Assembly (NCBI GenBank): GCA_026417375.1
Contig: JAOADJ010000037.1
Span: 1-64,000 of the forward strand
DNA length: 64,000 nucleotides
Direction of reading: 5' to 3'
Source of the DNA: Melioribacteraceae bacterium
Lineage (GTDB): Bacteria; Bacteroidota; Ignavibacteria; Ignavibacteriales; Melioribacteraceae
The notes below the pieces were generated by a model. The model saw only the letters and a program-made list of their open reading frames with translations. It did not search any database and was not told the origin of the DNA. Position numbers and translations under genes: made by a program. Shown here piece after piece: positions 14,719 to 42,702 of this stretch. How positions within the stretch are numbered: the stretch's first letter is position 1; each line of letters starts with the position of its first letter.

Positions 14719-15573
14719 ATGAGGGAAATATTGAATCTTGATTCGAAAAGTGAATTTGAAAAGTTTACTAAAGAAGTTGAAGAATTAAGAGATATTTGGA
14801 ACAGTTATCAGGAATTGCTATTAAGTTACAAAGCAAGCGAAGAAGAAGTAAAAAGAAAAAATGAAGAATTAAAAGAAGCCAATGAAACAAAAGACATTTT
14901 ATTTTCAATTATATCTCACGATTTAAGATCCCCATTTCAAGGTTTATTGGGGATTTCAAATTACCTTCTGGATGAATTTAATTCCTTAACAAATGATGAA
15001 ATCAAAGAATTAATTCAGTCTCTTAATGATGGTTTAAAAAATCAATATAAATTTCTAGATGATTTACTTAATTGGTCAAGACTACAATCCGGCAAGTTAC
15101 AAGTTGAAAGAAGTGATTTTAATTTATTTGAACTGGTTGAAAAAGTTAAAGAATTATTTATCAATAATTTAAATGCAAAAAAAATTTTATTCGTAAATAA
15201 TTTAAGAAGAGAAAAAATCATTAATGCAGATGAAGATTTAATTTACATTCTAATAAGAAATTTAATTTCAAACTCTATAAAATTCACGAATGAAAATGGT
15301 AAAGTAGAAGTTAATTCAATCTCATTTGAAGATTTTGTTCAAATCTCCATTTCAGATAATGGTGTTGGAATCAAGCAGGAAAACATAGACAAAATATTTA
15401 AAGTTGAAAATCATTTTACAACTCGTGGAACACATAATGAAAAAGGAAATGGATTTGGTTTAGCCCTTTGCAAGGAAATAGTATTAAAACACAATGGTAA
15501 AATTTGGTTAAAAAGCGAATTTGGCAAAGGAACAACATTCTTTTTTACAATACCTCATAAGATTGAACTTTAA
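14719..15573 (+). CDS. Orphan soluble sensor histidine kinase
   Basis: A 284-residue kinase with no membrane segment. Residues 1-58 are heptad-like and rich in Glu and Lys, probably a coiled coil. The HisKA domain carries the phospho-acceptor His67 in ISHDLRSPFQ. The HATPase domain shows the N box (IRNLISNSIKFT), G1 (ISDNGVGI) and G2 (GNGFGLALCK). No response regulator gene is adjacent, so its partner is elsewhere. It is divergent from the glycan locus and upstream of pruA, but a functional link to either is not shown. The lack of a sensor domain other than the coiled coil suggests control through a partner protein. Confidence 0.9.
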   Translation: MREILNLDSKSEFEKFTKEVEELRDIWNSYQELLLSYKASEEEVKRKNEELKEANETKDILFSIISHDLRSPFQGLLGISNYLLDEFNSLTNDEIKELIQSLNDGLKNQYKFLDDLLNWSRLQSGKLQVERSDFNLFELVEKVKELFINNLNAKKILFVNNLRREKIINADEDLIYILIRNLISNSIKFTNENGKVEVNSISFEDFVQISISDNGVGIKQENIDKIFKVENHFTTRGTHNEKGNGFGLALCKEIVLKHNGKIWLKSEFGKGTTFFFTIPHKIEL

Positions 15574-15621: not shown

Positions 15622-17259
15622 ATGGCAAACGCTGTATTTCATCATCCAATGCCCTTAAATGAACCAGTGAGAACTTATGAACCGGGTTCAAAAGAAAGAG
15701 AGGCATTAAAATCCAAATTAAAAGAGATTGAAAATCAATACTTAGAAATTCCGTTGATAATTGGAGGAAAAGAAATTCATACAGGTGATACTGAAGAAAT
15801 TTCTATGCCTCATAAACACAAACATAAATTAGGTAAGTATCATAAAGCCGGAAAAAAAGAAGTTCAAATGGCAATTGATTCATCTCTTGAAGCATGGAAA
15901 GTCTGGTCAAATATGGAATGGCAAGATCGGGTTGCAATTTTTCTCCGTGCAGCAGATATGATTACTCTTACAGATTGGCGTTATACGATATTAGCAGCTA
16001 CAATGTTGGGACAAAGTAAAAATGTTCATCAAGCAGAAATTGATGCAGCTTGCGAAACTGCAGATTTTTTCAGATTTAATGTTCACTATGCATATAAATT
16101 ATATCAGGGACAACCACCACATTCGCCTCATGGAATGTGGAACAGAATGGAATATCGTGCATTAGAAGGATTTATTTTTGCAGTAGCTCCTTTCAACTTT
16201 ACTACTTTTAATGCAAACTTACCCGGTGCACCTGCTATTATGGGAAATGTAGCTTTATTAAAACCAGCTGCAACTAGTGTGCTTTCTGCTTATTATATTG
16301 TTAAATTACTTGAAGCTGCAGGTTTACCACCAGGCGTTATTAATTTTATTCCCGGATCAGGACAAAAAATTGGTGATGTCGTTTTTAATAATCCAAATTT
16401 TGCAGGTTTACATTTTACAGGAAGTACTCAGGTTTTTCAATCAATGTGGAAGATAATAGGAAACAACATAAATAAATATAAAACCTACCCAAGAATTGTT
16501 GGAGAAACAGGAGGAAAAGATTTTGTTTTTGCTCATTCAAGTGCAAATGTAAAAGGATTAGCAACAGCTTTAATTCAAGGTTCATTTGAATATCAGGGAC
16601 AAAAATGTTCTGCCGCTTCCCGTGCGTATATCCCGAAATCTATTTGGCCAGAATTAAAAGAAATATTAGTAGAAGAATTAAAAAAATTAAAAACAGGTCC
16701 GGTTACAGATTTTACAAATTATAATAATGCAGTAATAGATAAAGCAGCTTTCGATTCTATTGTAAGTTACATTGAATTTGCAAAAAAATCTGACGAAGCA
16801 AAAATTATTGTAGGTGGAAAGTACAATGATAAAGTCGGTTATTTTATTAACCCAACTGTAATTGAAACAACAAACCCGAAATTCAAAACAATGGAAGAAG
16901 AAATTTTCGGTCCGGTTTTAACTGTCTATGTTTATGATGATAATAAATATGAAGAAACATTAAAGCTTTGTGATGAAACTTCTCCTTATGCTTTAACAGG
17001 TTCAATCTTTGCCGAAGATAGGTTAGCAATTGTAACTGCAGATAAAATTTTAAAACACTCAGCAGGCAATTTTTATATTAATGATAAACCAACGGGTGCG
17101 GTAGTTGGTCAGCAACCATTTGGTGGAGCAAGAGCAAGTGGAACTAATGATAAAGCCGGAAGTTTCTTAAATATTGTGCGTTGGGTTTCTCCAAGAACAA
17201 TTAAAGAAACATTTATACCAAGAAAAGATTTCAGATATCCATTTATGAGTGAGAAATAA
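15622..17259 (+). CDS. pruA: L-glutamate gamma-semialdehyde dehydrogenase (P5C dehydrogenase)
   Basis: A 545-residue ALDH4-family enzyme of usual length. It oxidises glutamate semialdehyde, the open form of pyrroline-5-carboxylate, to glutamate with NAD+. Catalytic Cys329 is in GQKCSAAS and the general base Glu295 is in VGETGGKD; PFNFTTFNANL and FTGST are further family marks. An AAAGGTAG ribosome site stands 8 bases before the ATG. ALDH4 enzymes also oxidise 4-hydroxyglutamate semialdehyde, so this gene would serve both the HypD route and the hydroxyproline dehydrogenase route encoded at 34080-42702. It is followed by a perfect palindromic terminator. Confidence 0.96.
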   Translation: MANAVFHHPMPLNEPVRTYEPGSKEREALKSKLKEIENQYLEIPLIIGGKEIHTGDTEEISMPHKHKHKLGKYHKAGKKEVQMAIDSSLEAWKVWSNMEWQDRVAIFLRAADMITLTDWRYTILAATMLGQSKNVHQAEIDAACETADFFRFNVHYAYKLYQGQPPHSPHGMWNRMEYRALEGFIFAVAPFNFTTFNANLPGAPAIMGNVALLKPAATSVLSAYYIVKLLEAAGLPPGVINFIPGSGQKIGDVVFNNPNFAGLHFTGSTQVFQSMWKIIGNNINKYKTYPRIVGETGGKDFVFAHSSANVKGLATALIQGSFEYQGQKCSAASRAYIPKSIWPELKEILVEELKKLKTGPVTDFTNYNNAVIDKAAFDSIVSYIEFAKKSDEAKIIVGGKYNDKVGYFINPTVIETTNPKFKTMEEEIFGPVLTVYVYDDNKYEETLKLCDETSPYALTGSIFAEDRLAIVTADKILKHSAGNFYINDKPTGAVVGQQPFGGARASGTNDKAGSFLNIVRWVSPRTIKETFIPRKDFRYPFMSEK

Positions 17260-17326: not shown

Positions 17327-19447
17327 TTAATCCATCTTACCATTTTTTAATTCATTTGAAACACGCGTTGCCTTATAAACTTTTTCAATTGCATAAACCA
17401 TAGCTCTTGAATCTACAGCTACCATTCTGTTGTTGTAAGGAATGTAGATATAATTCCCGATAATACTATCAATATTTCCATCGAAAGCTAAACCAACAAC
17501 TTCAGCATTTTTATTAATAACTGCGCTTCCAGAGTTTCCACCAACAATATCATTATTTGAAACAAAGTTGAAAGGAGTAGCTAAATCAAAATCAGCTGGC
17601 ACTTTTTCCCAAATTTTGTGTAAATCCCATGGATATTTTTTGTAGAATGAATGCCATCTATCATACATTCCATAAAATGTTGTAAAATAAGGTGCAACAG
17701 TTCCATTATATTCAAAAGCTTTTAAAGTTCCATCACTTAATCTCAATGTAAAGTTTGCATCAGGTGGAAGTTCAGTTCCATAAACTTCAACAATAGCTTG
17801 GCCTAACATATCATCATAAATTCCTTCAGTATCTGTTACTTCTTGCATTTGTTTTTGAAGTTCAGGCATTCTTTTGTCAACTTCTTTTACATAAAAAAGA
17901 ATAGGATCTTCAGATTTCATAATTGCTTCTGCGCCTTCTTTAGCAAGGTCAATTACATCATCACGGTCACCAAAAATTGAATTGTCTAATAACCATTTTG
18001 CTATTTCTTTTCCTTTTTTACCACCAGATAATTTTTTAACTAATGGATCATTCCAACCTAAATTTAAAGCCATGTATTCAATATTGATCCACAATTTAGT
18101 GTTTTCTAAAAGTTCATCAATTTTTTCCGGGAATAATGCCTTTAAAGTTGAATCTAATTTTTCAGCTTTGTATTGAGCAGCTCTTTGATCTTCTGGTTTT
18201 TGCAATTCTTTTGCTACATCAAGTAATGATTTTGCCATTCCGAAATATCTTGAACCAAACATTCTGTTTTGAACAAAAGAAAAAGATGCCATTTGTGGAG
18301 CAATTTTTCTTGCTTCGTTTCTTGTGCTTTCAATGTTTTCCCAAACCTTACCATATTTTTCTTTTAATGAAGAGTTTTTGTTTACAGCTTCTTGTAATTT
18401 TTTTTGGAAATCAACTTTCTTTGCATAAACGTATGGATCTTTTAACCCTTTTAATGTAGTTGAAATTACTTTCTGACTGTTTCCAAGTTGAACTCTTAAA
18501 TCTTCAAATTCTTTTGCTCTGGAAGGATCTTCTTTTTTCAAATCTTCAAGTGCATAATAATATGAATCAAATAAGAAGGCATTGTTTCTGTAAGTTATAT
18601 CTCTTGCAAATTCTAATTGAGCAACAGTTTTTAATCTGTTTGTTGTGCCAGGATTTCCAACTGTAAAAATTGGTTCGCCGGGTTCAATTCCATTTAAAGA
18701 GAATTTAAAATAATTAGTTGATTTAACCGGTTTATCATTTTCATAAGCGCGATAGAAAGTACAATCAAGATTATAACGTGGATATGTGAAATTATCATAA
18801 TCTCCACCGAAATATGCAACTTGCATTTCAGGTGCAAACACTAAACGTATATCTGTATAACGTTTATAACCATAAAGTGAATATTTACCACCATTGAATA
18901 GTGGTATAATTTGAATTTGCAAACCAGTTTCTTTCTGATATTTATCAGATAATTCTTTAATCTTTGCTTTTTTCTTTTCTGCTTTTTCTTTTACTGTAGT
19001 TCCTTCTTTTTCAGCATTGTGAATATCTTCAGTAACATCTTTAATCAATACAAGCTGATCTGCATAGTAATTAGGAATTTTTCTCTCTTCAGCTAATGTT
19101 TTTGCGAAGAAGCCATCTTTAATTAAATCTTCACCTTCTTTTTTTAATCTTTCTAATAATCCACGAGCACAGTGATGATTTGTCATCATTAAACCATCTT
19201 CAGAAACAAAAGAAGAAGTACAACCCGGTAATCTTAATGCAGAAAGACGAATATCTTCAAACCATTCTTCATTTGTTTTTAAATTGTAAGTTTTTTTAAG
19301 ATAGTCAACTGGTGGGTAATCAAATGCCCATTGTTTTCCATTATCATGTTTTTGAAATTTGACTGTATCTAAATTTAACTGAGCATTAAGTGGAATAACA
19401 AATGAGAACAATAACAAGAATGAAATTAGTTGATAAAGTTTTTTCAT
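17327..19447 (-). CDS. S46 family dipeptidyl-peptidase (DPP7/DPP11 type)
   Basis: A 706-residue secreted serine exopeptidase with an N-terminal signal peptide (hydrophobic LISFLLLFSFVIPLNA). It cuts dipeptides from the N-terminus of oligopeptides in the periplasm. Catalytic His is in MMTNHHCARG (His91/92), Asp in GGDYDNFTYPR, and Ser639 in GGNSGSAV. Eighteen residues after the serine, where DPP11 has the Arg that selects Asp/Glu, this protein has Gly (Gly657, in AFDGN), as in DPP7, so a preference for hydrophobic P1 residues is inferred. Length is normal for S46. An AAGGTG ribosome site precedes the ATG. The genomic setting near pruA and the hydroxyproline genes fits peptide feeding. Confidence 0.93.
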   Translation of the reverse strand: MKKLYQLISFLLLFSFVIPLNAQLNLDTVKFQKHDNGKQWAFDYPPVDYLKKTYNLKTNEEWFEDIRLSALRLPGCTSSFVSEDGLMMTNHHCARGLLERLKKEGEDLIKDGFFAKTLAEERKIPNYYADQLVLIKDVTEDIHNAEKEGTTVKEKAEKKKAKIKELSDKYQKETGLQIQIIPLFNGGKYSLYGYKRYTDIRLVFAPEMQVAYFGGDYDNFTYPRYNLDCTFYRAYENDKPVKSTNYFKFSLNGIEPGEPIFTVGNPGTTNRLKTVAQLEFARDITYRNNAFLFDSYYYALEDLKKEDPSRAKEFEDLRVQLGNSQKVISTTLKGLKDPYVYAKKVDFQKKLQEAVNKNSSLKEKYGKVWENIESTRNEARKIAPQMASFSFVQNRMFGSRYFGMAKSLLDVAKELQKPEDQRAAQYKAEKLDSTLKALFPEKIDELLENTKLWINIEYMALNLGWNDPLVKKLSGGKKGKEIAKWLLDNSIFGDRDDVIDLAKEGAEAIMKSEDPILFYVKEVDKRMPELQKQMQEVTDTEGIYDDMLGQAIVEVYGTELPPDANFTLRLSDGTLKAFEYNGTVAPYFTTFYGMYDRWHSFYKKYPWDLHKIWEKVPADFDLATPFNFVSNNDIVGGNSGSAVINKNAEVVGLAFDGNIDSIIGNYIYIPYNNRMVAVDSRAMVYAIEKVYKATRVSNELKNGKMD

Positions 19448-34079: not shown

Positions 34080-34889
34080 TTGAATAATAACTACGCATTT
34101 ATTTTTGATATTAAAAAATATTCTGTTAATGATGGACCTGGAATTCGAACAACCATTTTTTTCAAAGGGTGCCCATTAAATTGTTTTTGGTGTCATAACC
34201 CTGAAAGTCAAAATTATAATCCTGAAGAAATTCAAGACTGTTCCTTTAGGTGGAGACCTGCAAATAATTATTCTAATTCTAATACTATTGGTTATAAAAT
34301 ATCTTTGAATGAACTTTTGAGGGAAATAGAAAAAGATAATTTGTTTTATGAAGAATCACGTGGAGGTGTAACTTTTTCAGGTGGTGAACCAATGTTACAA
34401 ATTGATTTTCTTCAAAATATTTTATGTGAATCAAAAAATAGAAATATAAACACAGCAATTGATACAACTGGTTATGCCAAATATTCAGACTTCGAAAAAA
34501 TTATTAAATACACCGATATATTTCTATACGATTTAAAATTAATGAACGATGATCTTCATAAATATTATTGCGGTGTTTCAAATAAAATTATCCACGAGAA
34601 TTTGATAAAGCTTTCAAACGACACAAAAAAAATTATTTTAAGAATTCCAATAATTCCCTCAATTACTGATACCGAAGAAAATATTAATTTGATGATAAAC
34701 TTTATTTCAAAACTCAATAACATACTTGAAATAGATTTATTACCATTTCATAACACGGCAAAATCTAAGTATGAAAAAATGAAAAAAGAAAATAAAGTTG
34801 CTAATTTAGTTCCACCAAATGCTGAACATATGCAATTAATTAAAAATAAATTTTCTGTGTTGAATATTCCGATTAAAATCGGAGGTTAA
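34080..34889 (+). CDS. Glycyl-radical enzyme activating protein (radical SAM), HypD activase
   Basis: A 269-residue radical SAM activase that would install the glycyl radical on the HypD dehydratase encoded two bases downstream. The N-terminus has SVNDGPGIRTTIFFKGCPLNC and the CX3CX2C cluster motif GCPLNCFWCHNPE (given here in two overlapping parts), then the GGEPMLQ segment. Activases for this class usually have a ferredoxin-like insert with two more Cys clusters right after CHNPE; here the insert is about 30 residues with a single Cys, so the extra clusters are missing. The only start in range is a TTG at 34080 with no clear ribosome site. It begins the hydroxyproline operon. Confidence 0.88.
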   Translation: MNNNYAFIFDIKKYSVNDGPGIRTTIFFKGCPLNCFWCHNPESQNYNPEEIQDCSFRWRPANNYSNSNTIGYKISLNELLREIEKDNLFYEESRGGVTFSGGEPMLQIDFLQNILCESKNRNINTAIDTTGYAKYSDFEKIIKYTDIFLYDLKLMNDDLHKYYCGVSNKIIHENLIKLSNDTKKIILRIPIIPSITDTEENINLMINFISKLNNILEIDLLPFHNTAKSKYEKMKKENKVANLVPPNAEHMQLIKNKFSVLNIPIKIGG

Positions 34890-34891
34890 TT

Positions 34892-37255
34892 ATGACCGAT
34901 AGAATAAAAAAATTAAGAGACCAATCTTTAACGGCAATTCCAACAATGTCCCACGAAAGAGCATTACTATTAACTCAATTTTATAAAAGCAGTGAAGCTC
35001 AAAAATATTCTGTGCCGGTTACTCGTGCATTAGCTTTCAAATACATTTTAGAGAATAAAGAACTTTGTATAAACGATGGTGAACTTTTTGTAGGTGAAAA
35101 AGGACCCGAACCAAAAGCAACACCAACTTATCCGGAACTATGCATTCATTCAAAAGAAGATTTAGAAATTTTACACAACAGAGAAAAAGTTTGGTTTAAA
35201 TCTTCTGAAGAAACAAGAGAAATTATTTTAAATGAAGTTGCACCATTTTGGAAAGGTAAAAGCATAAGAGAAAAAATACTTTCAGAAGTTGATCAGGAAT
35301 GGATTGATGCTTACAAAGCAGGTGTGTTTACAGAATTTATGGAACAAAGGGCGCCGGGGCATACTGTTGCAGATGATAAAATTTATAAAAAAGGAATGCT
35401 TGATTTTATTCAAGATATAAGAAGTTCAGTTTCTAAATTAGATTTCTATAACGATCCTGAAGCTTTTAATAAAAGAGAAGAATTAAAAGCAATGGAGATT
35501 TGTGCAAATGCATTAATATCATTTGCAAAAAGATATTCAAAAAAACTTTATCAGCTTGCAGAAACTGAAAAAGATTCAATTCGTAAACTTGAATTAGAAA
35601 CTATGGCCGGAATTTGTGAACGTGTGCCGGCTAACGCTCCAAGAACATTTTGGGAAGCATTGCAATATTATTGGTTTGTTCATATCGGTGTTACTACTGA
35701 GTTAAACACTTGGGATTCATTTAATCCCGGAAGATTAGATCAACATTTATATCCTTTTTACAAACGTGATATTGAAAGTGGTTTATTAACAGAAGATTTT
35801 GCTCGTGAATTACTTCAATCATTTTGGATAAAATTTAATAATCAACCTGCACCACCTAAAGTTGGTGTAACAGCACAAGAAAGTAATACATATACAGATT
35901 TTTGTTTAATTAATGTTGGTGGTGTTAATGAACTTGGAGAAGATGCAACAAATGAAATGACGTATATTCTTCTTGATACAATAGAAGAAATGAGATTATT
36001 GCAACCAAGCTCGATGGTTCAGGTGAGTAAAAAAAATCCTGATAGAATTTTAAAGCGGGCTTTAAAAATTATTCGTACAGGATTTGGTCAGCCATCTATT
36101 TTCAATACCGATGCAATAATTCAGGAATTGACACGACAAGGAAAATCAATTATTGATGCACGATTAGGAGGAGCAAGTGGTTGTGTTGAAGCTGGTGCTT
36201 TTGGAAAAGAAAGTTATATCTTAACAGGATATTTCAACATTCCTAAAATTCTTGAACTTACACTCAACAATGGATTTGATCCGAGAACAAATAAGCAAAT
36301 TGGAATTAAAACTGGTGAATTAAATTCATTTAAAGATTACGATGAGTTTTATAAAGCTTTTGAAAAACAACTTAACCACTTTATAGATATTAAAATAAAA
36401 GGAAATTTAATTATAGAAAGAATTTATGCTGAATATATGCCTGCACCTTTTATGTCAATATTAATTGATGATTGTATCGCAAAAGGAAAAGATTATAACA
36501 ATGGTGGCGCAAGATATAATTCATCATATATTCAGGGTGTTGGAATTGGAACAATAACTGACTCGTTAGCTTCAATAAAATTTAATGTATTTGATAAAAA
36601 ATATTTAACTCTCGAAGAACTAAAGAAAATACTTGATAATAATTTTAACGATAATGATTTCATTCGTAAAATGTTTTTATATGAATCTCCTAAATATGGA
36701 AATGATGATGACTATGCCGATAATATAACAAGACAAGTTTTCGAATCTTATTTCAAAGCGATAGATGGAAGACCAAATACTAAGGGGGGGCATTTTCGTG
36801 TAAATCTTTTGCCAACTACTTGCCATGTATATTTTGGAAATGTTTTAGGTGCAACTCCTGATGGAAGATTAGCAAAAGAACCAGTAAGCGAAGGAATTTC
36901 ACCGGTTCAAGGTGCTGATGTTAATGGTCCAACAGCTGTTATAAAATCGGCAAGTAAAATTGATCATTTAAGAACAGGTGGAACTTTATTAAATCAAAAG
37001 TTTACACCAAATTTTTTATCAACTGAGGAAGGAATTGAAAAAGTTTTATATTTAATCAGAACTTATTTTAGAATGGATGGGCATCATATTCAATTCAATG
37101 TAGTAAATGCAGAAACTTTACGAGATGCTCAAAAACATCCGGAAAAATACAGAGACCTCATTGTTCGTGTTGCAGGTTATAGCGATTATTTTGTAGATCT
37201 TGGTGAAGATCTTCAAAATGAAATTATTCGCAGAACTGAACACATGAACTTATAA
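34892..37255 (+). CDS. hypD: trans-4-hydroxy-L-proline dehydratase (glycyl radical enzyme HypD)
   Basis: A 787-residue glycyl radical enzyme that dehydrates trans-4-hydroxy-L-proline to pyrroline-5-carboxylate. The thiyl Cys431 and base Glu433 lie in GGASGCVEAGAFGKE, Asp275 is in NTWDSFNPG, and the radical Gly762 is in RVAGYSDYF. All are at a constant offset of three from the positions I recall for Clostridioides difficile HypD (434, 436, 278, 765), and the wording separates it from choline lyase, glycerol dehydratase and PFL. A GGAGG site precedes the ATG. The product feeds PruA or a P5C reductase. It works only without oxygen, as the glycyl radical is oxygen-labile. Confidence 0.95.
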   Translation: MTDRIKKLRDQSLTAIPTMSHERALLLTQFYKSSEAQKYSVPVTRALAFKYILENKELCINDGELFVGEKGPEPKATPTYPELCIHSKEDLEILHNREKVWFKSSEETREIILNEVAPFWKGKSIREKILSEVDQEWIDAYKAGVFTEFMEQRAPGHTVADDKIYKKGMLDFIQDIRSSVSKLDFYNDPEAFNKREELKAMEICANALISFAKRYSKKLYQLAETEKDSIRKLELETMAGICERVPANAPRTFWEALQYYWFVHIGVTTELNTWDSFNPGRLDQHLYPFYKRDIESGLLTEDFARELLQSFWIKFNNQPAPPKVGVTAQESNTYTDFCLINVGGVNELGEDATNEMTYILLDTIEEMRLLQPSSMVQVSKKNPDRILKRALKIIRTGFGQPSIFNTDAIIQELTRQGKSIIDARLGGASGCVEAGAFGKESYILTGYFNIPKILELTLNNGFDPRTNKQIGIKTGELNSFKDYDEFYKAFEKQLNHFIDIKIKGNLIIERIYAEYMPAPFMSILIDDCIAKGKDYNNGGARYNSSYIQGVGIGTITDSLASIKFNVFDKKYLTLEELKKILDNNFNDNDFIRKMFLYESPKYGNDDDYADNITRQVFESYFKAIDGRPNTKGGHFRVNLLPTTCHVYFGNVLGATPDGRLAKEPVSEGISPVQGADVNGPTAVIKSASKIDHLRTGGTLLNQKFTPNFLSTEEGIEKVLYLIRTYFRMDGHHIQFNVVNAETLRDAQKHPEKYRDLIVRVAGYSDYFVDLGEDLQNEIIRRTEHMNL

Positions 37256-37276
37256 TTTTTATAAACAGGAGAATTT

Positions 37277-38671
37277 ATGTTCAAAGCAAAAACTTATATT
37301 CAACGTAGAGAAGAATTAAAAAAGAAAATTAAAACAGGATTAATTTTATTTCTTGGAAATAGTGAAGCACCAATGAATTATGCTGCGAACACTTATCATT
37401 TTCGTCAAGATAGTACATTTCTTTATTACTTTGGATTAGACAGAGCAGATTTAGCTGCAGTAATTGATTTAGATGAAAACAAAGAAATAATTTTTGGTGA
37501 AGATTATACTATTGATGATATTGTATGGATGGGTCCACAAAAAACAATTAAACAAGAAGCATTGAGATGTGGAGTTAAAAAGACAGGTAACTTTTCAGAT
37601 TTAGAAAAAATATGTGAAGATGCTTTTAAACGTGGAAGAAAAATTCACTTCATTCCTCAATATCGTTATGATAACATTTTAAAGATACATAAACTTCTTG
37701 GAATTGCTCCAAAACATAGTAATGATTATGCATCAACTGAATTAATAAAAGCAATAGCCGAACAAAGATTAATAAAAACTCAGGAAGAAATTAATGAAAT
37801 TGAAAAAGCAATTGAAATTGCTTATGAAATGCAAACCACTGCTATGCGTTTTGCAAAACCGGGGATGTATGAAAAAGATGTTATGGGATTCATTTCGGGA
37901 TTAGCAATGTCTTTAGGTAGCGGGCTTTCTTTTCCGGTTATTTTTTCCCGTCATTCGGAAATATTACATAATCATTATTATGGAAATAAATTAAAAGATG
38001 GCGATTTAGTTGTTAACGATTCTGGTGCAGAATCTTCGTTGCATTACGCAAGTGATATTACAAGAACATTTCCGGTTAATGGTAAGTTTAGGTCAATTCA
38101 AAAAGATATTTATGAAATTGTTTTAATTACACAACTTGTGGCAATTTCAGAAATTAAACCAAATATTACATATTATTCTGTTCATCTTAAAGCTGCAGAA
38201 ACAATTGTAGAAGGATTGAAATCAATCGGTTTGATGAAGGGTAATACAAAAGATGCTGTTAAAGCTGGCGCACATGCACTTTTCTTTCCACATGGGTTAG
38301 GGCATTTACTTGGTCTTGATGTTCACGATATGGAAAATTATGGTGAAAATAATTTTGGTTACGATGAAAAACATAAACGAAGCACTCAATTCGGATTAAA
38401 ATATTTGCGTTATGCTAAACCATTAAAAGAAAACGTTGTTTTAACTGTTGAACCTGGAATTTATTTTATTCCTGCTTTAATTGAAAAGTGGCAAAGTGAA
38501 AATAAACATGTGGATTTTATTAACTATGATAAAGTAAAGGAATTTAAAAATTTTGGTGGTGTTCGTATTGAAGATGATGTTGTTGTAACAAAAGATGGTG
38601 CGCGTGTTTTAGGTAAACCAATTCCAAAAGCAGTTGAAGATGTTGAAGAAATAGCTGGCAACAAAATTTAA
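37277..38671 (+). CDS. Xaa-Pro aminopeptidase / prolidase (M24B family)
   Basis: A 464-residue metallopeptidase of the aminopeptidase P type. The N-terminal creatinase-like domain (FRQDSTFLYYFGL) is followed by the pita-bread domain with all five metal ligands in place: Asp in VNDSGAES, Asp in SDITRTFP, His in GLGHLLGLDVHD, Glu in TVEPGIYF and Glu in GGVRIEDD. No signal peptide, so it is cytosolic. It removes an N-terminal residue before (hydroxy)proline, which collagen-derived peptides need. It lies between hypD and the 3-hydroxyproline dehydratase, with gaps of 21 and 6 bases, which supports this role. Confidence 0.93.
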   Translation: MFKAKTYIQRREELKKKIKTGLILFLGNSEAPMNYAANTYHFRQDSTFLYYFGLDRADLAAVIDLDENKEIIFGEDYTIDDIVWMGPQKTIKQEALRCGVKKTGNFSDLEKICEDAFKRGRKIHFIPQYRYDNILKIHKLLGIAPKHSNDYASTELIKAIAEQRLIKTQEEINEIEKAIEIAYEMQTTAMRFAKPGMYEKDVMGFISGLAMSLGSGLSFPVIFSRHSEILHNHYYGNKLKDGDLVVNDSGAESSLHYASDITRTFPVNGKFRSIQKDIYEIVLITQLVAISEIKPNITYYSVHLKAAETIVEGLKSIGLMKGNTKDAVKAGAHALFFPHGLGHLLGLDVHDMENYGENNFGYDEKHKRSTQFGLKYLRYAKPLKENVVLTVEPGIYFIPALIEKWQSENKHVDFINYDKVKEFKNFGGVRIEDDVVVTKDGARVLGKPIPKAVEDVEEIAGNKI

Positions 38672-38677
38672 TTTAAA

Positions 38678-39730
38678 ATGACTTTTACATCTCACTTTAA
38701 AAAAATAGCTGATTGGATTCATCCAGATGATTGGATTGAAATTGAAACAATTGATGCACACACCGCTGGCGAACCTTTAAGAATTATTTTAAGTGGATTT
38801 CCTGAAATAAAAGGAAAAACAATCCTGGAAAAAAGAAAATATTTTAAAGAGAATTATGATTATCTAAGAAAATTATTAATGTATGAACCACGCGGGCATG
38901 CTGATATGTATGGTTGTGTTATTACTCCACCGGTTTCTGATGATTCCGATTTTGGAGTAATATTTATTCATAATGAAGGTTATAGTACAATGTGTGGTCA
39001 TGGAATTATTTCTTTAACAAAAGTTGTACTTGAAACAGGTATGTATGATAAAATAGAACCAATAACAAAAATAAAAATTGATACACCTTCAGGACTTGTT
39101 ACCGCTTATGCTAAAATAGTTAACCAAAAAGTTGATTCAATTTTTTTTGATAATGTTGAGTCATTTATTCTTTCAGAAAATAAAATCATTGAAATACCCA
39201 ATCTTGGAAAAATAAATTATGATGTTGCTTTTGGTGGAGCTTTTTATGCTTTTGTAAATGCAGACGAAATTGGACTTGAACTTGTAGAAAAAAATTACCG
39301 AGAGATCATTGAAAAAGGAATGATAATCAAAAATGAAATTATGAAGAATTGTGAAATAAAACATCCAACAAATGATGAGTTAAGTTTTTTATACGGGACA
39401 ATATTTTACTCAAAACCCAAAAATGAAAGTAATTTCAGTAGACATGTTTGTGTTTTTGCAAATGGAGAAGTTGATAGAAGTCCAACCGGTACAGGTGTAA
39501 GTGCAAGAGCAGCAATTTTATATAGCAAAAATCAAATTGGTTTAAATCAAAAAGTAACGATTGAAAGTATAATAGATACTTCATTTTCTGTTGAAGTTAT
39601 AAAAGAATCGGATAATCATAAATATAAAGCAATTATTCCTCGTGTAGAAGGAAATGCATTTATAATAAGCAAAAATACTTTTTACTTAGATCCGGAAGAT
39701 CCATTAAAAAATGGTTTCTTTTTAAGATAG
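38678..39730 (+). CDS. trans-3-hydroxy-L-proline dehydratase (proline racemase family)
   Basis: A 350-residue member of the proline racemase superfamily. The first catalytic Cys is kept (Cys106 in GYSTMCGHG), but the second is Thr270 in DRSPTGTG, where racemases and 4-hydroxyproline epimerases have Cys. This Cys/Thr pair is the mark of trans-3-hydroxy-L-proline dehydratase (human L3HYPDH has Cys104 and Thr273). Other stretches that resemble the human enzyme are EPRGHADMYG, GGAFYAFV and the DPLKNGFFLR end. The product is pyrroline-2-carboxylate, which is reduced to proline by another enzyme. It is the fourth gene of the operon. Confidence 0.9.
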   Translation: MTFTSHFKKIADWIHPDDWIEIETIDAHTAGEPLRIILSGFPEIKGKTILEKRKYFKENYDYLRKLLMYEPRGHADMYGCVITPPVSDDSDFGVIFIHNEGYSTMCGHGIISLTKVVLETGMYDKIEPITKIKIDTPSGLVTAYAKIVNQKVDSIFFDNVESFILSENKIIEIPNLGKINYDVAFGGAFYAFVNADEIGLELVEKNYREIIEKGMIIKNEIMKNCEIKHPTNDELSFLYGTIFYSKPKNESNFSRHVCVFANGEVDRSPTGTGVSARAAILYSKNQIGLNQKVTIESIIDTSFSVEVIKESDNHKYKAIIPRVEGNAFIISKNTFYLDPEDPLKNGFFLR

Positions 39731-39740
39731 GGGAAATAAA

Positions 39741-40667
39741 ATGAATATATCTCGAACTATTCTTCTTTGGATGTCAGAAAATTCATTACTTAAAAACAAA
39801 ATTCCTAAACTCAAATTTGTTCGTAAAGCAATTAAAAAATTTATGCCCGGTGAAACAGAGTATGAAGCTATTTTAGCAGCAGAAAAATTATTAAAAGATG
39901 ATATCGGAGTTACATTTACAAAACTTGGCGAAAACATTACTCAAATTGCTGAAGCTGAAAAAGTAAAAAATCATTATTTGCAACTGATACAAATAATTAA
40001 AAACAAAAAATTAAACATTGAGCTTTCCATCAAATTAACTCAACTTGGTTTCGATTTAGATGAAGAAGTTTGTTTTAAATATTGTGAAGAGATTATTAAT
40101 AGCGTGAAATTAAATTTAGGGAACACACTTTTTATAGATATGGAGGGAAGTTCTTACACTCAGCGCACAATTGATTTTTATAAAAGATTAAAAACAATAA
40201 ATCAAAATGTTGGTATATGTTTACAAGCTTATCTTTACAGAACACAAAATGATTTGAGCGATTTATTAGTTGAAAATTCAAAAATACGCTTAGTAAAAGG
40301 TGCTTATCGTGAAGCTAAAGAAATTGCTTATCCCTTAAAAAAAGATGTTGATAAAAATTATTTGGATTTATCTAAAAAAATGTTGATGAAAATAAAAGAA
40401 AATTCTATAAGAATAATTTTTGGTACACACGACGACATTTTAATTGAAAAAATTATTAAAGAAGCGAAGTATTTAAATATTTCAAAAGAGCATCTTGAAT
40501 TCCAGATGTTATATGGTATTAAGAATGAATATTTAAAAGATTTAGTAAAACGTGGTTACAAAGGTTCAATATTAATTGCTTATGGTAATAGTTGGTATGC
40601 CTGGTATATGAGAAGATTAGCAGAAAGACCAGCAAATATATGGTTCGTTTTAAAAAATATTTTTTAA
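39741..40667 (+). CDS. Proline / hydroxyproline dehydrogenase (monofunctional, FAD)
   Basis: A 308-residue PRODH-family TIM barrel of the same length as Thermus PRODH. SIKLTQLGFDLDEE, RLVKGAYREAKE and WYMRRLAERPAN, with the substrate arginines at 291-292, are present. The residue that contacts proline C4, Tyr275 in Thermus and Tyr540 in E. coli PutA, is Leu278 here (ILIAYG). In mammals the same position is Tyr in proline dehydrogenase but Ser in hydroxyproline dehydrogenase (PRODH2). The loss of Tyr plus the HOGA- and AGT-like genes next door suggest 4-hydroxyproline as substrate. Proline remains possible. Fifth gene of the operon. Confidence 0.9.
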   Translation: MNISRTILLWMSENSLLKNKIPKLKFVRKAIKKFMPGETEYEAILAAEKLLKDDIGVTFTKLGENITQIAEAEKVKNHYLQLIQIIKNKKLNIELSIKLTQLGFDLDEEVCFKYCEEIINSVKLNLGNTLFIDMEGSSYTQRTIDFYKRLKTINQNVGICLQAYLYRTQNDLSDLLVENSKIRLVKGAYREAKEIAYPLKKDVDKNYLDLSKKMLMKIKENSIRIIFGTHDDILIEKIIKEAKYLNISKEHLEFQMLYGIKNEYLKDLVKRGYKGSILIAYGNSWYAWYMRRLAERPANIWFVLKNIF

Positions 40668-40689
40668 ATAAAATTATTTACAAAACAAC

Positions 40690-41577
40690 ATGAAAAATTT
40701 AACAGGAATATTTCCACCAATAACAACTCCATTTATAAATGGTGAATTATCAATAGAAAAACTGGAGTATAATATTAGTAGATACAATAAAACTGAGCTT
40801 TCAGGTTATGTTGTAATGGGTTCAAATGGAGAAGCCGTTTTTTTAAGTAAAGATGAAAAACTTAAACTTGTTGAAAACACAAAAAAATTTTCATCATCAG
40901 AAAAAAAAATTATTGTTGGAACTGGAAGCGATTCTATTAAAGAAACAATTTCCTTAACTAATGAAACAGCTGAACTTGGTGCCGATTATGCTTTGGTACT
41001 TACTCCATCTTTTTATAAATCTGAAATGAAACATAATAACTATATTAATTTTTTTTATGAAGTTGCCGATAAATCTAAAATTCCTGTTATTATTTATAAT
41101 GTTCCAAAATTCACAGGAATAGATATTGAAGTTGAAACTGTTGTGCAACTTTCATTGCATCAAAATATAGTTGGAATTAAAAATAGCACAGAAAATTCTC
41201 GGCAACTTATTGAATTTATTTCTAACACAAATGAAAATTTTAAAGTATTTGTTGGCACTGCTTCGATGTTATTCAATGGATTAACATCCGGAGCTGTTGG
41301 TGGAATAGTTGCATTAGCAAACATTGCCCCTAATCAATGTCTGGAAATTCAAAAATTAATAGAACAGAATAAACCAAAAGAAGCTTTATCCCTTCAACAG
41401 AAAATGATTCCTGTTAATAAAGCAGTAACATCGAAATATGGTGTTGCAGGTTTAAAATATGCAATGGATTTAATTGGTTATTTTGGTGGTGAACCAAGAA
41501 TTCCATTATTACCATTAAACGAAAAAGATAAAGAACAACTAAAAAACATTTTAATTGAAGCAGAAATTTTAAGGTGA
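40690..41577 (+). CDS. 4-hydroxy-2-oxoglutarate aldolase (HOGA1-like, DapA family)
   Basis: A 295-residue DHDPS/NAL-family aldolase. Schiff-base Lys164 is in GIKNS and Tyr136 in IIYNVP. The carboxylate loop is GSNGEA (Ser45-Asn46), as in human HOGA1, whereas DapA has two Thr here. Ser45, Tyr136, Lys164 and Ser166 sit at one constant offset of 32 from human Ser77, Tyr168, Lys196 and Ser198. Many stretches are shared, for example FPPITTPF, GAVGGIVALAN and the AVTSKYGVAGLK segment. The reaction would be 4-hydroxy-2-oxoglutarate to glyoxylate and pyruvate, which the following aminotransferase can use. A plain DapA or NanA role is unlikely in this context. Confidence 0.85.
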   Translation: MKNLTGIFPPITTPFINGELSIEKLEYNISRYNKTELSGYVVMGSNGEAVFLSKDEKLKLVENTKKFSSSEKKIIVGTGSDSIKETISLTNETAELGADYALVLTPSFYKSEMKHNNYINFFYEVADKSKIPVIIYNVPKFTGIDIEVETVVQLSLHQNIVGIKNSTENSRQLIEFISNTNENFKVFVGTASMLFNGLTSGAVGGIVALANIAPNQCLEIQKLIEQNKPKEALSLQQKMIPVNKAVTSKYGVAGLKYAMDLIGYFGGEPRIPLLPLNEKDKEQLKNILIEAEILR

Positions 41578-41580
41578 AAT

Positions 41581-42702
41581 ATGTTTGAATCTTTTAAACC
41601 AATAAATAGATTTTTAATGGGACCTGGTCCGGCAAATGTTCATCCGAAAGTTCTTGAAGCATTATCCAAACCAACGCTTGGTCATCTCGATCCACAATTT
41701 TTACAATTAATGGAAGAGTTAAAAAATTTATTACGATATGTATTTAAAACTAAAAATGAAAATACATTTGTAATTTCTGGTCCAGGATCACTTGGTATGG
41801 AAGCTTCATTAGTTAATATGATCGAACCCGATGATAAAATTATTGTATGCGTAGGTGGTTATTTTTCAAACCGTATGGCTCAAATTGCCGAAAAATTTGG
41901 TGCAAATGTAATTGTTGTAAAAGAAGAATGGGGAAGAGCAATTGAACCACAAAAGCTTGAAGATGCATTAAAAGAAAATAGTGATACAAAATTTGTTGCA
42001 TTTGTTCATGCAGAAACATCAACCGGTGCTTTGTCTGATGCAAAAACATTATCTAAAATTGCACATGATTACAATTCATTAGTTATTACTGATGCAGTTA
42101 CATCACTTGGAGCAGTTGATTTATATGTTGATGAATGGAATCTTGATGTAGTTTATTCATGCTCTCAAAAAGGATTGGCATGTGTTGCCGGAATGTCTCC
42201 TGTTACTTTCAGTGATGCTGCTATTCATCATATTAAAAACAGAAAAACAAAAATAAAAAGTTGGTTTAATGATTTTAACTTTTTAGAACCATATTGGTTT
42301 GGTGAAAATAAAAGAGCTTATCATCACACGGCACCAGCAAATCAATTTTATGCTTTACACGAAGCACTTTCTTTAATTAAAGATGAAGGTATTGAAAATT
42401 CTTGGGAAAGACACAAAAGAAATAGCAATAAACTAATTGAAAGACTAAAGAACGAATTACATCTTGAACCTATTGTTCCAATTGAAGAAAGAATTCCTCA
42501 TTTGCTTGCAATAAAAGTTCCGGATGGAATTGATGAAGCAAAAGTTAGAAAAGAATTGTTAGAAAAATTCAACTTAGAAATTGGTGTCGGACTTGGCGAA
42601 TTGGCTGGTAAAGTTTGGAGAATTGGGTTAATGGGTTACAATTCAAATGAAAGAATGGTTGATTACTTAATTAAAAGCTTAAAAGAAGTAATTAGCAAAT
42701 AA
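41581..42702 (+). CDS. Alanine-glyoxylate / serine-pyruvate aminotransferase (AGXT-like)
   Basis: A 373-residue class V PLP aminotransferase. MGPGPANVHPKVLEA opens the protein, Asp171 is in ITDAVTSLG and PLP Lys197 is in SCSQKGLA. The shape resembles human AGXT, including SGPGSLGMEASLVN, the YHHTAPANQFYAL loop and the C-terminal GLGELAGKVWRIGLMG. It would convert glyoxylate, released by the aldolase three bases upstream, to glycine with alanine or serine as donor. It is the last gene of the operon. Alternative substrates of class V enzymes (serine, phosphonates) cannot be excluded by sequence alone. Confidence 0.88.
   Translation: MFESFKPINRFLMGPGPANVHPKVLEALSKPTLGHLDPQFLQLMEELKNLLRYVFKTKNENTFVISGPGSLGMEASLVNMIEPDDKIIVCVGGYFSNRMAQIAEKFGANVIVVKEEWGRAIEPQKLEDALKENSDTKFVAFVHAETSTGALSDAKTLSKIAHDYNSLVITDAVTSLGAVDLYVDEWNLDVVYSCSQKGLACVAGMSPVTFSDAAIHHIKNRKTKIKSWFNDFNFLEPYWFGENKRAYHHTAPANQFYALHEALSLIKDEGIENSWERHKRNSNKLIERLKNELHLEPIVPIEERIPHLLAIKVPDGIDEAKVRKELLEKFNLEIGVGLGELAGKVWRIGLMGYNSNERMVDYLIKSLKEVISK

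What the first reader, a model, noticed from the sequence alone, without database searches (positions are those of the whole stretch)
34080..42702. Seven-gene operon for collagen hydroxyproline breakdown that joins an anaerobic and a vertebrate-like route
The order activase, HypD, Xaa-Pro aminopeptidase, 3-hydroxyproline dehydratase, (hydroxy)proline dehydrogenase, HOGA-like aldolase and AGT-like aminotransferase has gaps of only 2, 21, 6, 10, 22 and 3 bases. HypD gives pyrroline-5-carboxylate without oxygen. The last three genes match the mammalian mitochondrial path: hydroxyproline dehydrogenase, 4-hydroxy-2-oxoglutarate to glyoxylate and pyruvate, then glyoxylate to glycine. L3HYPDH handles the 3-isomer of collagen. 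I know of no described bacterial operon with this full set. Seen: gene order and motifs. Known: family reactions. Inferred: that one cell uses both routes, perhaps chosen by oxygen.
Basis: partly seen in the sequence, partly recalled or inferred. Interest (0 to 1): 0.88.

Follow-up and report, generated by a model that had tools for sequence, protein, structure and literature searches.

The report
Bacterial operon with two hydroxyproline routes
A bacterium related to Ignavibacteria carries a compact gene set that appears to break down hydroxyproline, a building block of collagen, both by an oxygen-sensitive radical enzyme and by a route like the one in human mitochondria, for which I found no description in bacteria.

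Summary
The seven genes and six gaps are as described. HypD is firm: over its curated cut-off, 10 of 10 published active-site residues kept. The dehydrogenase belongs to a clade in which the tyrosine at the PutA-540 place is leucine in 81 of 81 distinct sequences; the genome's second copy keeps tyrosine. The aldolase groups with human HOGA1, apart from DapA. Of 80 public loci with the leucine-type dehydrogenase, 46 have the aldolase just downstream, and 34 of those 46 the aminotransferase; none of the other 34 has the aminotransferase. Stygiobacter electus keeps the syntenic operon without activase and HypD, with no HypD match in its genome, so the routes are separable modules. Best reading: catabolism of collagen-type peptides by an anaerobic HypD branch and a respiratory, mammal-like glyoxylate branch. 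Substrates, induction and the oxygen switch are inferred, not shown.

The parts
34080..34889 (+). HypD activase, radical SAM, TTG start; compact form without the two ferredoxin-type clusters
   Evidence: NF043069 best model (319 bits, under its 425 cut-off), TIGR02494 264 bits over its 174 cut-off; CX3CX2C at Cys31/35/38 and only 6 Cys
34892..37255 (+). HypD, trans-4-hydroxy-L-proline dehydratase (glycyl radical enzyme)
   Evidence: NF043068 1319 bits over 1100; 6vxc 1097 bits, 456 of 782 aligned positions identical, H157 D275 S331 D336 F337 C431 E433 Y447 T642 G762 all kept (residues named in PMC7077986 section 8)
37277..38671 (+). M24 Xaa-Pro aminopeptidase/prolidase type
   Evidence: PF00557 and PF05195 over cut-off; no NCBIfam equivalog cut-off reached
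38678..39730 (+). probable trans-3-hydroxy-L-proline dehydratase (proline racemase fold, Cys/Thr pair)
   Evidence: best NCBIfam NF045511 375 bits (cut-off 540, not reached); 6r76 488 bits (named proline racemase in the PDB listing), sequence MCGHG and DRSPTGTG; Thr in 9 of 9 aldolase-linked copies, the L089 copy, not aldolase-linked, has Cys
39741..40667 (+). leucine-type proline/hydroxyproline dehydrogenase, proposed L-hydroxyproline dehydrogenase
   Evidence: PF01619; Leu278 and Trp288 in 84 of 84 rows of its clade (81 distinct: L036, L038, L040 are second fetches of L075, L083, L081), Tyr/Tyr in the genome's second copy; own clade SH-aLRT 99
40690..41577 (+). HOGA-type 4-hydroxy-2-oxoglutarate aldolase
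   Evidence: human HOGA1 3s5n/3s5o 209 bits against 142 bits or less for the other chains listed; GSNGE motif, tree with HOGA1 apart from DapA; TIGR00674 dapA 197 bits, under its 206 cut-off
41581..42702 (+). alanine-glyoxylate-type class V aminotransferase
   Evidence: 1vjo 380 bits, 3kgw alanine-glyoxylate aminotransferase 261 bits; PF00266; NCBIfam equivalog cut-offs not reached
15622..17259 (+). L-glutamate gamma-semialdehyde (P5C) dehydrogenase; the missing step, operon-linked in relatives
   Evidence: TIGR01236 800 bits over 613.6; the L036 and L038 copies also over the cut-off; lies beside the operon in L036 and L038, and in L035 by the look of a partial ORF at the contig end; within 10 kb of the dehydrogenase in 19 of 46 aldolase-linked loci
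14719..15573 (+). sensor histidine kinase beside the P5CDH; in L036 and L035 a similar kinase lies between P5CDH and the activase
   Evidence: kinase models; hits of 55-56% identity next to P5CDH in L057 and L075; neighbourhoods

Best explanation
This is a catabolic operon for peptides rich in hydroxyproline (collagen or similar). The M24 peptidase frees imino acids from Xaa-Pro/Xaa-Hyp peptides. Trans-4-hydroxy-L-proline can then go two ways. Without oxygen, HypD and its activase dehydrate it to P5C, which P5CDH takes to glutamate or ProC to proline. With a respiratory quinone acceptor, the leucine-type dehydrogenase oxidises it to 3-hydroxy-P5C; P5CDH makes 4-hydroxyglutamate; a transaminase makes 4-hydroxy-2-oxoglutarate; the HOGA-type aldolase splits it to pyruvate and glyoxylate; the AGT-type enzyme turns glyoxylate into glycine, which a glycine cleavage system could use. 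The trans-3 isomer goes through the racemase-fold dehydratase to P2C. Shown here: gene families, order, conservation, active-site residues, modularity. Inferred: the substrates of dehydrogenase, aldolase and aminotransferase, the oxygen-dependent choice, the unidentified transaminase and the P2C reductase.
For: HypD residues 10 of 10 and curated cut-off. Dehydrogenase: Leu/Trp in place of Tyr/Tyr in 81 of 81 distinct sequences of its clade. Of 24 genomes sampled from the 80 loci, the 12 with an aldolase-linked copy each hold exactly two family members, the other one tyrosine type; the window's genome is the same. Aldolase next to the dehydrogenase in 46 of 80 loci; among those 46, AGT 34, P5CDH 19, HypD 12, M24 18, racemase-fold dehydratase 9; among the 34 without aldolase the counts are 0, 0, 0, 1 and 0. 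Aldolase groups with human HOGA1 and not with DapA or the S. meliloti candidate deaminase. Extra genes in relatives fit peptide use: POT peptide transporter and second M24 peptidase; a cluster found in 9 loci whose one scanned member is an S37 peptidase. Stygiobacter electus has the same flanks and genes 3-7 but no activase/HypD, and no HypD match in its genome; G019 and G028 have HypD but no DHDPS-family match. Two PF00115 genes, two PF01571 hits, 311 and 81 bits, one P5CR_dimer hit.
Against: No enzyme or expression data. P5CDH lies 17 kb away in this genome. For P2C from the trans-3 isomer no reductase was found: PF02423 only under cut-off (22.3 against 24 bits), PF02615 none. Activase, racemase-fold dehydratase, M24 peptidase and aminotransferase stay under the equivalog cut-offs of their best NCBIfam models. 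Leucine-type dehydrogenases also stand without the aldolase, in Chloroflexota, Gemmatimonadota, Acidobacteriota and some Ignavibacteriales loci, and 4 of 12 such genomes sampled have only the leucine type, so leucine alone does not prove hydroxyproline as substrate. Of 12 dehydrogenase-aldolase loci with at least 9 kb on either side plus the rest, HypD is present in only 12 of 46 (10 of 29 with at least 9 kb upstream), so the pairing of the two routes is a minority arrangement. Promoter-like and terminator-like sites were fewer than in shuffles (38 against 50.5; 1 against 3.2). No S37 peptidase in this genome (in which no control rang).
Confidence: 0.7

Rival explanations
1. The dehydrogenase is a second L-proline dehydrogenase. 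HypD and the trans-3 dehydratase feed P5C and P2C/proline, the dehydrogenase and P5CDH take proline to glutamate, and the aldolase and aminotransferase serve another purpose.
For: Same Pfam family and overall match to Thermus ProDH; NCBIfam offers only proline dehydrogenase models; leucine-type copies exist without the aldolase, and are the only family member in 4 of 12 such genomes sampled.
Against: A tyrosine-type proline dehydrogenase is already present in this genome and in 12 of 12 aldolase-linked genomes sampled; the aldolase follows the dehydrogenase in 46 of 80 loci, which a pure proline route does not need.
Confidence: 0.15
2. The DHDPS-family gene is DapA (lysine/diaminopimelate synthesis) or a Pyr4H2C deaminase of the D-hydroxyproline route.
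For: It is the only DHDPS-family gene found in this 99% complete genome; dapA model TIGR00674 scores 197 bits, close to its 206 cut-off.
Against: 16 of 33 relatives in its own family have no DHDPS-family match at all, 12 of those 16 at least 90% complete, so DapA is not required there. Order-level relatives carry DapA-type genes (GTTGE, 268-304 bits), and five of them (G037, G041, G048, G055, G056) also a second match of 171-196 bits, in the range of the operon type, though these second copies were not put in the tree. The gene groups with human HOGA1. For the deaminase: the S. meliloti candidate has GSMGD and lies on the DapA side of the tree on a long branch, and none of the seven genes is a Cys/Cys epimerase, D-Hyp oxidase or KGSA dehydrogenase.
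Confidence: 0.08
3. A neutral neighbourhood: two or three unrelated amino-acid gene sets that happen to lie together.
For: The composition varies between relatives: HypD, the trans-3 dehydratase, P5CDH and the transporter come and go; unrelated genes can sit inside (restriction-modification pair in L060/L062, glycosidase in L058/L059).
Against: Seven genes with gaps of at most 22 bases; same order in three genomes (window, L036, L040); most variable parts fit hydroxyproline peptide use.
Confidence: 0.05

Closest known systems
HypD pathway of gut Clostridia (PMC7077986, passages and section 8 read)
   Same: HypD with its activase; 10 of 10 active-site residues
   Different: There HypD lies near a P5C reductase and feeds proline to Stickland fermentation; here no P5CR is among the seven genes, and an oxidative branch follows. 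The activase lacks the two extra cluster motifs.
Mammalian hydroxyproline route (HYPDH/PRODH2, ALDH4A1, GOT2, HOGA1, AGXT; HYPDH passages in PMC13155685, the rest recalled)
   Same: Same reaction classes and the same families for dehydrogenase, P5CDH, aldolase and aminotransferase; aldolase 108 of 285 aligned positions identical to HOGA1
   Different: Dehydrogenase nearest to bacterial monofunctional types, with Leu (PRODH2 recalled Ser); genes in an operon; no GOT2 counterpart identified
Bacterial D-hydroxyproline route (S. coelicolor HypR regulon PMC6608401; Colwellia collagen cluster PMC7883544; passages read)
   Same: Gene clusters for collagen/hydroxyproline use with a proline-racemase-fold and a DHDPS-like protein
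   Different: Those epimerise to D-Hyp and end at alpha-ketoglutarate via Pyr4H2C deaminase and KGSA dehydrogenase; here the racemase-fold protein has Cys/Thr, the DHDPS-family protein is HOGA type and none of the seven genes is a D-Hyp oxidase

Membership tests
trans-4-hydroxy-L-proline dehydratase (HypD) | curated equivalog score | tested here: met
   1319 bits against 1100
trans-4-hydroxy-L-proline dehydratase (HypD) | residues H160 D278 S334 D339 F340 C434 E436 Y450 T645 G765 | tested here: met
   10 of 10 (residues)
trans-4-hydroxy-L-proline dehydratase (HypD) | activity on hydroxyproline | not testable with these tools
   -
trans-3-hydroxy-L-proline dehydratase | Cys and Thr (not Cys) at the two catalytic places | tested here: met
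   MCGHG, DRSPTGTG; the rule itself is recalled
trans-3-hydroxy-L-proline dehydratase | curated equivalog score NF045511 | tested here: not met
   375 bits against 540; therefore named probable only
hydroxyproline dehydrogenase (HYPDH) | loss of the tyrosine that favours proline (PutA Y540) | tested here: met
   Leu278 here, Tyr in E. coli PutA 540 and in the second copy; the role of Y540 is recalled, its paper was not held
hydroxyproline dehydrogenase (HYPDH) | orthology to PRODH2 | not tested
   no PRODH2 sequence was in the tree
hydroxyproline dehydrogenase (HYPDH) | higher activity on hydroxyproline than on proline | not testable with these tools
   -
4-hydroxy-2-oxoglutarate aldolase (HOGA1 type) | grouping with HOGA1 rather than DapA | tested here: met
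   the branch between the DapA side and the side of the operon type plus HOGA1 has 98/86; HOGA1's own node is weak, 85/55
4-hydroxy-2-oxoglutarate aldolase (HOGA1 type) | aldolase activity | not testable with these tools
   -
alanine-glyoxylate aminotransferase | best solved relatives are AGTs; PLP lysine and carboxylate arginine kept | tested here: met
   alignments (SQK, RIG); residue roles recalled; NCBIfam has no cut-off reached
L-glutamate gamma-semialdehyde dehydrogenase (P5CDH) | curated equivalog score TIGR01236 | tested here: met
   800 bits against 613.6
D-hydroxyproline (LhpA/HypE) route | Cys/Cys epimerase | tested here: not met
   second place is Thr

The most novel reading that the evidence does not exclude
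The leucine-type dehydrogenases next to HOGA-type aldolases are a new family of bacterial L-hydroxyproline dehydrogenases, and the neighbouring AGT-type enzyme uses 4-hydroxyglutamate itself as amino donor: 4-hydroxyglutamate + glyoxylate gives 4-hydroxy-2-oxoglutarate + glycine, and the aldolase regenerates the glyoxylate. The operon plus P5CDH would then be a self-contained loop that splits hydroxyproline into pyruvate and glycine with no outside transaminase, run beside an oxygen-free HypD bypass.
Probability: 0.25. Interest if true: 0.78.

Novelty: new variant of a known kind. Interest (0 to 1): 0.62.

Why it matters
It would give bacteria a second, mammal-like way to use hydroxyproline that ends in glyoxylate and glycine instead of alpha-ketoglutarate, pair it with an oxygen-sensitive radical route, and supply bacterial models for the enzymes behind primary hyperoxaluria. 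The leucine/tyrosine pair in one genome makes substrate choice in proline dehydrogenases directly testable. It would also suggest new names for genes that general models call proline dehydrogenase or DapA in Ignavibacteria and relatives.

Tried and rejected
DapA and Pyr4H2C deaminase readings of the aldolase: weighed and rejected on the lack of any DHDPS-family match in 16 of 33 family relatives and on the tree. A first aldolase tree misread loci whose match was on the minus strand; it was discarded and redone. Promoter and terminator scan: fewer sites than in shuffles. The dehydrogenase tree left out, before counting, L036, L038 and L040 and nine leucine-type loci as duplicates. Literature: five full-text searches aimed at a bacterial hydroxyproline route through glyoxylate or at Ignavibacteria: 4 of 4 papers listed; 8 of 8; 20 of 115; 1 of 1; 15 of 5,620; no listed title or abstract start described it. 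Only listings were read there, except the passages named, and the library lacks most subscription papers, so absence from print is not shown. Searches served HypD and PRODH background. One search (Stygiobacter/Melioribacter with collagen/hydroxyproline; 15 of 10,305 listed) showed only collagen and hydroxyproline papers. Passages of PMC12398946, PMC5335563 and PMC12899673 gave nothing that I used. No structure prediction was run.

Full report
OBSERVATION. The seven ORFs and the six gaps are exactly as described. All ten residues mutated in the C. difficile HypD study (section 8 of PMC7077986) are kept in the window protein, 456 of 782 aligned positions identical.

WHERE IT IS. The window is part of a 2.83 Mb, 58-contig genome given as 99.0% complete.

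THE MISSING STEPS. The mammal-like route needs two steps between the dehydrogenase and the aldolase. One, P5C/3-hydroxy-P5C dehydrogenase, is in the window but 17 kb upstream at 15622-17259 (TIGR01236 800 bits, cut-off 613.6), next to a histidine kinase. In relatives the gene sits at the operon: divergent, beyond a kinase, in L036 and (a partial ORF at the contig end) L035, and directly behind the aminotransferase on the same strand in L038. The other step, a transaminase for 4-hydroxyglutamate, was not identified and not searched for. So the seven genes are not the full set, but the P5CDH linkage in relatives strengthens the pathway reading.

THE DEHYDROGENASE. In E. coli PutA residue 540 is Tyr (checked on K-12). 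That this tyrosine favours proline over hydroxyproline, and that human PRODH2 has Ser there, is recalled; the paper I had in mind is not held. The operon protein has Leu278. A scan of genome contigs with four operon-type dehydrogenases gave 117 confirmed relatives, of which the best 80 were kept. Leu is found in 80 of 80; with the window, 81 of 81 distinct (the script's 84 rows include L036, L038 and L040, second fetches of L075, L083 and L081). A second position, aligned with PutA Tyr552, is Trp in the same 84 of 84 rows against Tyr in the genome's other copy; its role was not tested. The scan's two search motifs contain neither position, but they are typical of this clade, so the count says the residues are fixed within the clade. 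The leucine type is one group in the tree (SH-aLRT 99), apart from 25 tyrosine-type rows (quick method). I searched 24 of the 80 source genomes: the 12 chosen from the 46 aldolase-linked loci each have exactly two family members, the other one tyrosine type; of 12 chosen from the 34 others, 8 also have a tyrosine type and 4 have the leucine type alone. Against my reading: these lone leucine types show that the residue alone does not settle the substrate.

THE ALDOLASE. Best solved relative is human HOGA1 (209 bits; next 142), 108 of 285 aligned positions identical. It is the only DHDPS-family gene found in the genome, which raised the rival that it is DapA. But 16 of 33 relatives of the same family have no such match at all (12 of the 16 at least 90% complete), while order-level relatives have genes of 268-304 bits, five of them with a second match of 171-196 bits. 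In a tree of 47 proteins the operon type (GSNGE) lies with HOGA1, and the 268-304-bit group (GTTGE, with E. coli DapA) lies with the S. meliloti candidate deaminase (GSMGD) on the other side of a 98/86 branch. HOGA1's own node is weak (85/55), the bootstrap had not settled, and L165, L166, HOGA1 and the S. meliloti row have long branches. How the window's family obtains diaminopimelate is unexplained.

GENE NEIGHBOURS. In the 80 loci, 46 have the aldolase within 2.5 kb downstream. Of these 46: AGT 34 (24 of 29 with at least 6.5 kb downstream), P5CDH within 10 kb 19 (10 of 16 with at least 9 kb on both sides); upstream within 10 kb: HypD 12 and activase 12 (10 of 29 with at least 9 kb upstream), M24 18, trans-3 dehydratase 9, second M24 8, POT transporter 4. 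Of the 34 without aldolase: 0, 0, 0, 0, 1, 0, 0, 0; 11 of those 34 have under 3.4 kb of downstream sequence. The aldolase-linked dehydrogenases fall in one part of the tree, 53 rows with 6 unlinked, of which L072, L082 and L088 end within 900 bases and L090 within 1.2 kb; L089 and L105 are unlinked with room to spare. Other neighbours fit peptide use: a cluster in 9 loci whose scanned member (L061) is an S37 peptidase, and an S8 protease cluster in L078/L092, scanned in L078.

TWO MODULES. Stygiobacter electus (L054) has the same flanking genes and genes 3-7, with about 160 bases in place of activase and HypD, and no HypD match in its genome. G005, a 99% complete same-genus genome with an aldolase indistinguishable from L054's in the tree, has none either. 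Of 11 genomes checked that have the dehydrogenase-aldolase module but no HypD in the fetched locus, 6 have no match, 1 only a 30% match, and 4 have matches of 53-82% elsewhere; some of these may be contig-break effects. Conversely G019 and G028 have HypD but no DHDPS-family match. So each route occurs alone, and the window has both; HypD accompanies the aldolase-linked dehydrogenase in a minority of loci.

MECHANISM. As in Best explanation. Supporting genome content: two PF00115 oxidase-family genes, one P5CR_dimer match, two PF01571 hits. Not found: a P2C reductase of the two families tried (PF02423 under cut-off; PF02615), so the fate of trans-3-Hyp is open.

NOVELTY. Described bacterial clusters in the papers I read in passages go through D-hydroxyproline to alpha-ketoglutarate (PMC6608401; PMC7883544) or through HypD to proline (PMC7077986). 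Five searches (two of them with capped lists) showed no bacterial HYPDH-HOGA-AGT operon, within a library that lacks most subscription papers. I rate it a new variant of a known kind: known reactions in a combination and host group for which I found no description.

Noticed in passing
window 34080-34889; L036, L040, L041, L042, L045 versus L047, L048, L050: Activases beside HypDs of 66% or more identity (6 looked at, the window's included, of 13) lack the eight-Cys ferredoxin-type insert, while those beside the 53-55% HypDs (3 looked at of 4) keep it.
   Followed up: partly
genome G000 and family f1 relatives: No DHDPS-family match above about 205 bits was seen in the window's genome or its 33 family relatives, and 16 of the 33 have none at all. 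The source of diaminopimelate and lysine there is unknown.
   Followed up: no
L060:7427-9924, L062: A restriction endonuclease (PF09545) and DNA methylase pair, scanned in L060, sits inside the catabolic gene row between M24 and the dehydrogenase.
   Followed up: no
L058:2664-5120, L059: A family 2 glycoside hydrolase, scanned in L058, lies between aldolase and aminotransferase; possibly for glycosylated hydroxyproline peptides.
   Followed up: no
window 17327-19447 (-): The only NCBIfam match is dipeptidyl-peptidase Dpp7 (224 bits, under its 1200 cut-off); the gene lies next to the P5CDH.
   Followed up: no
L036:12917-13210, L035:4363-4677: A small protein (97 aa in L036, no Pfam or NCBIfam match; a look-alike of about 104 aa in L035, not scanned) lies between M24 and the trans-3 dehydratase in two same-genus relatives; the 6-base gap in the window leaves no room for it.
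   Followed up: no
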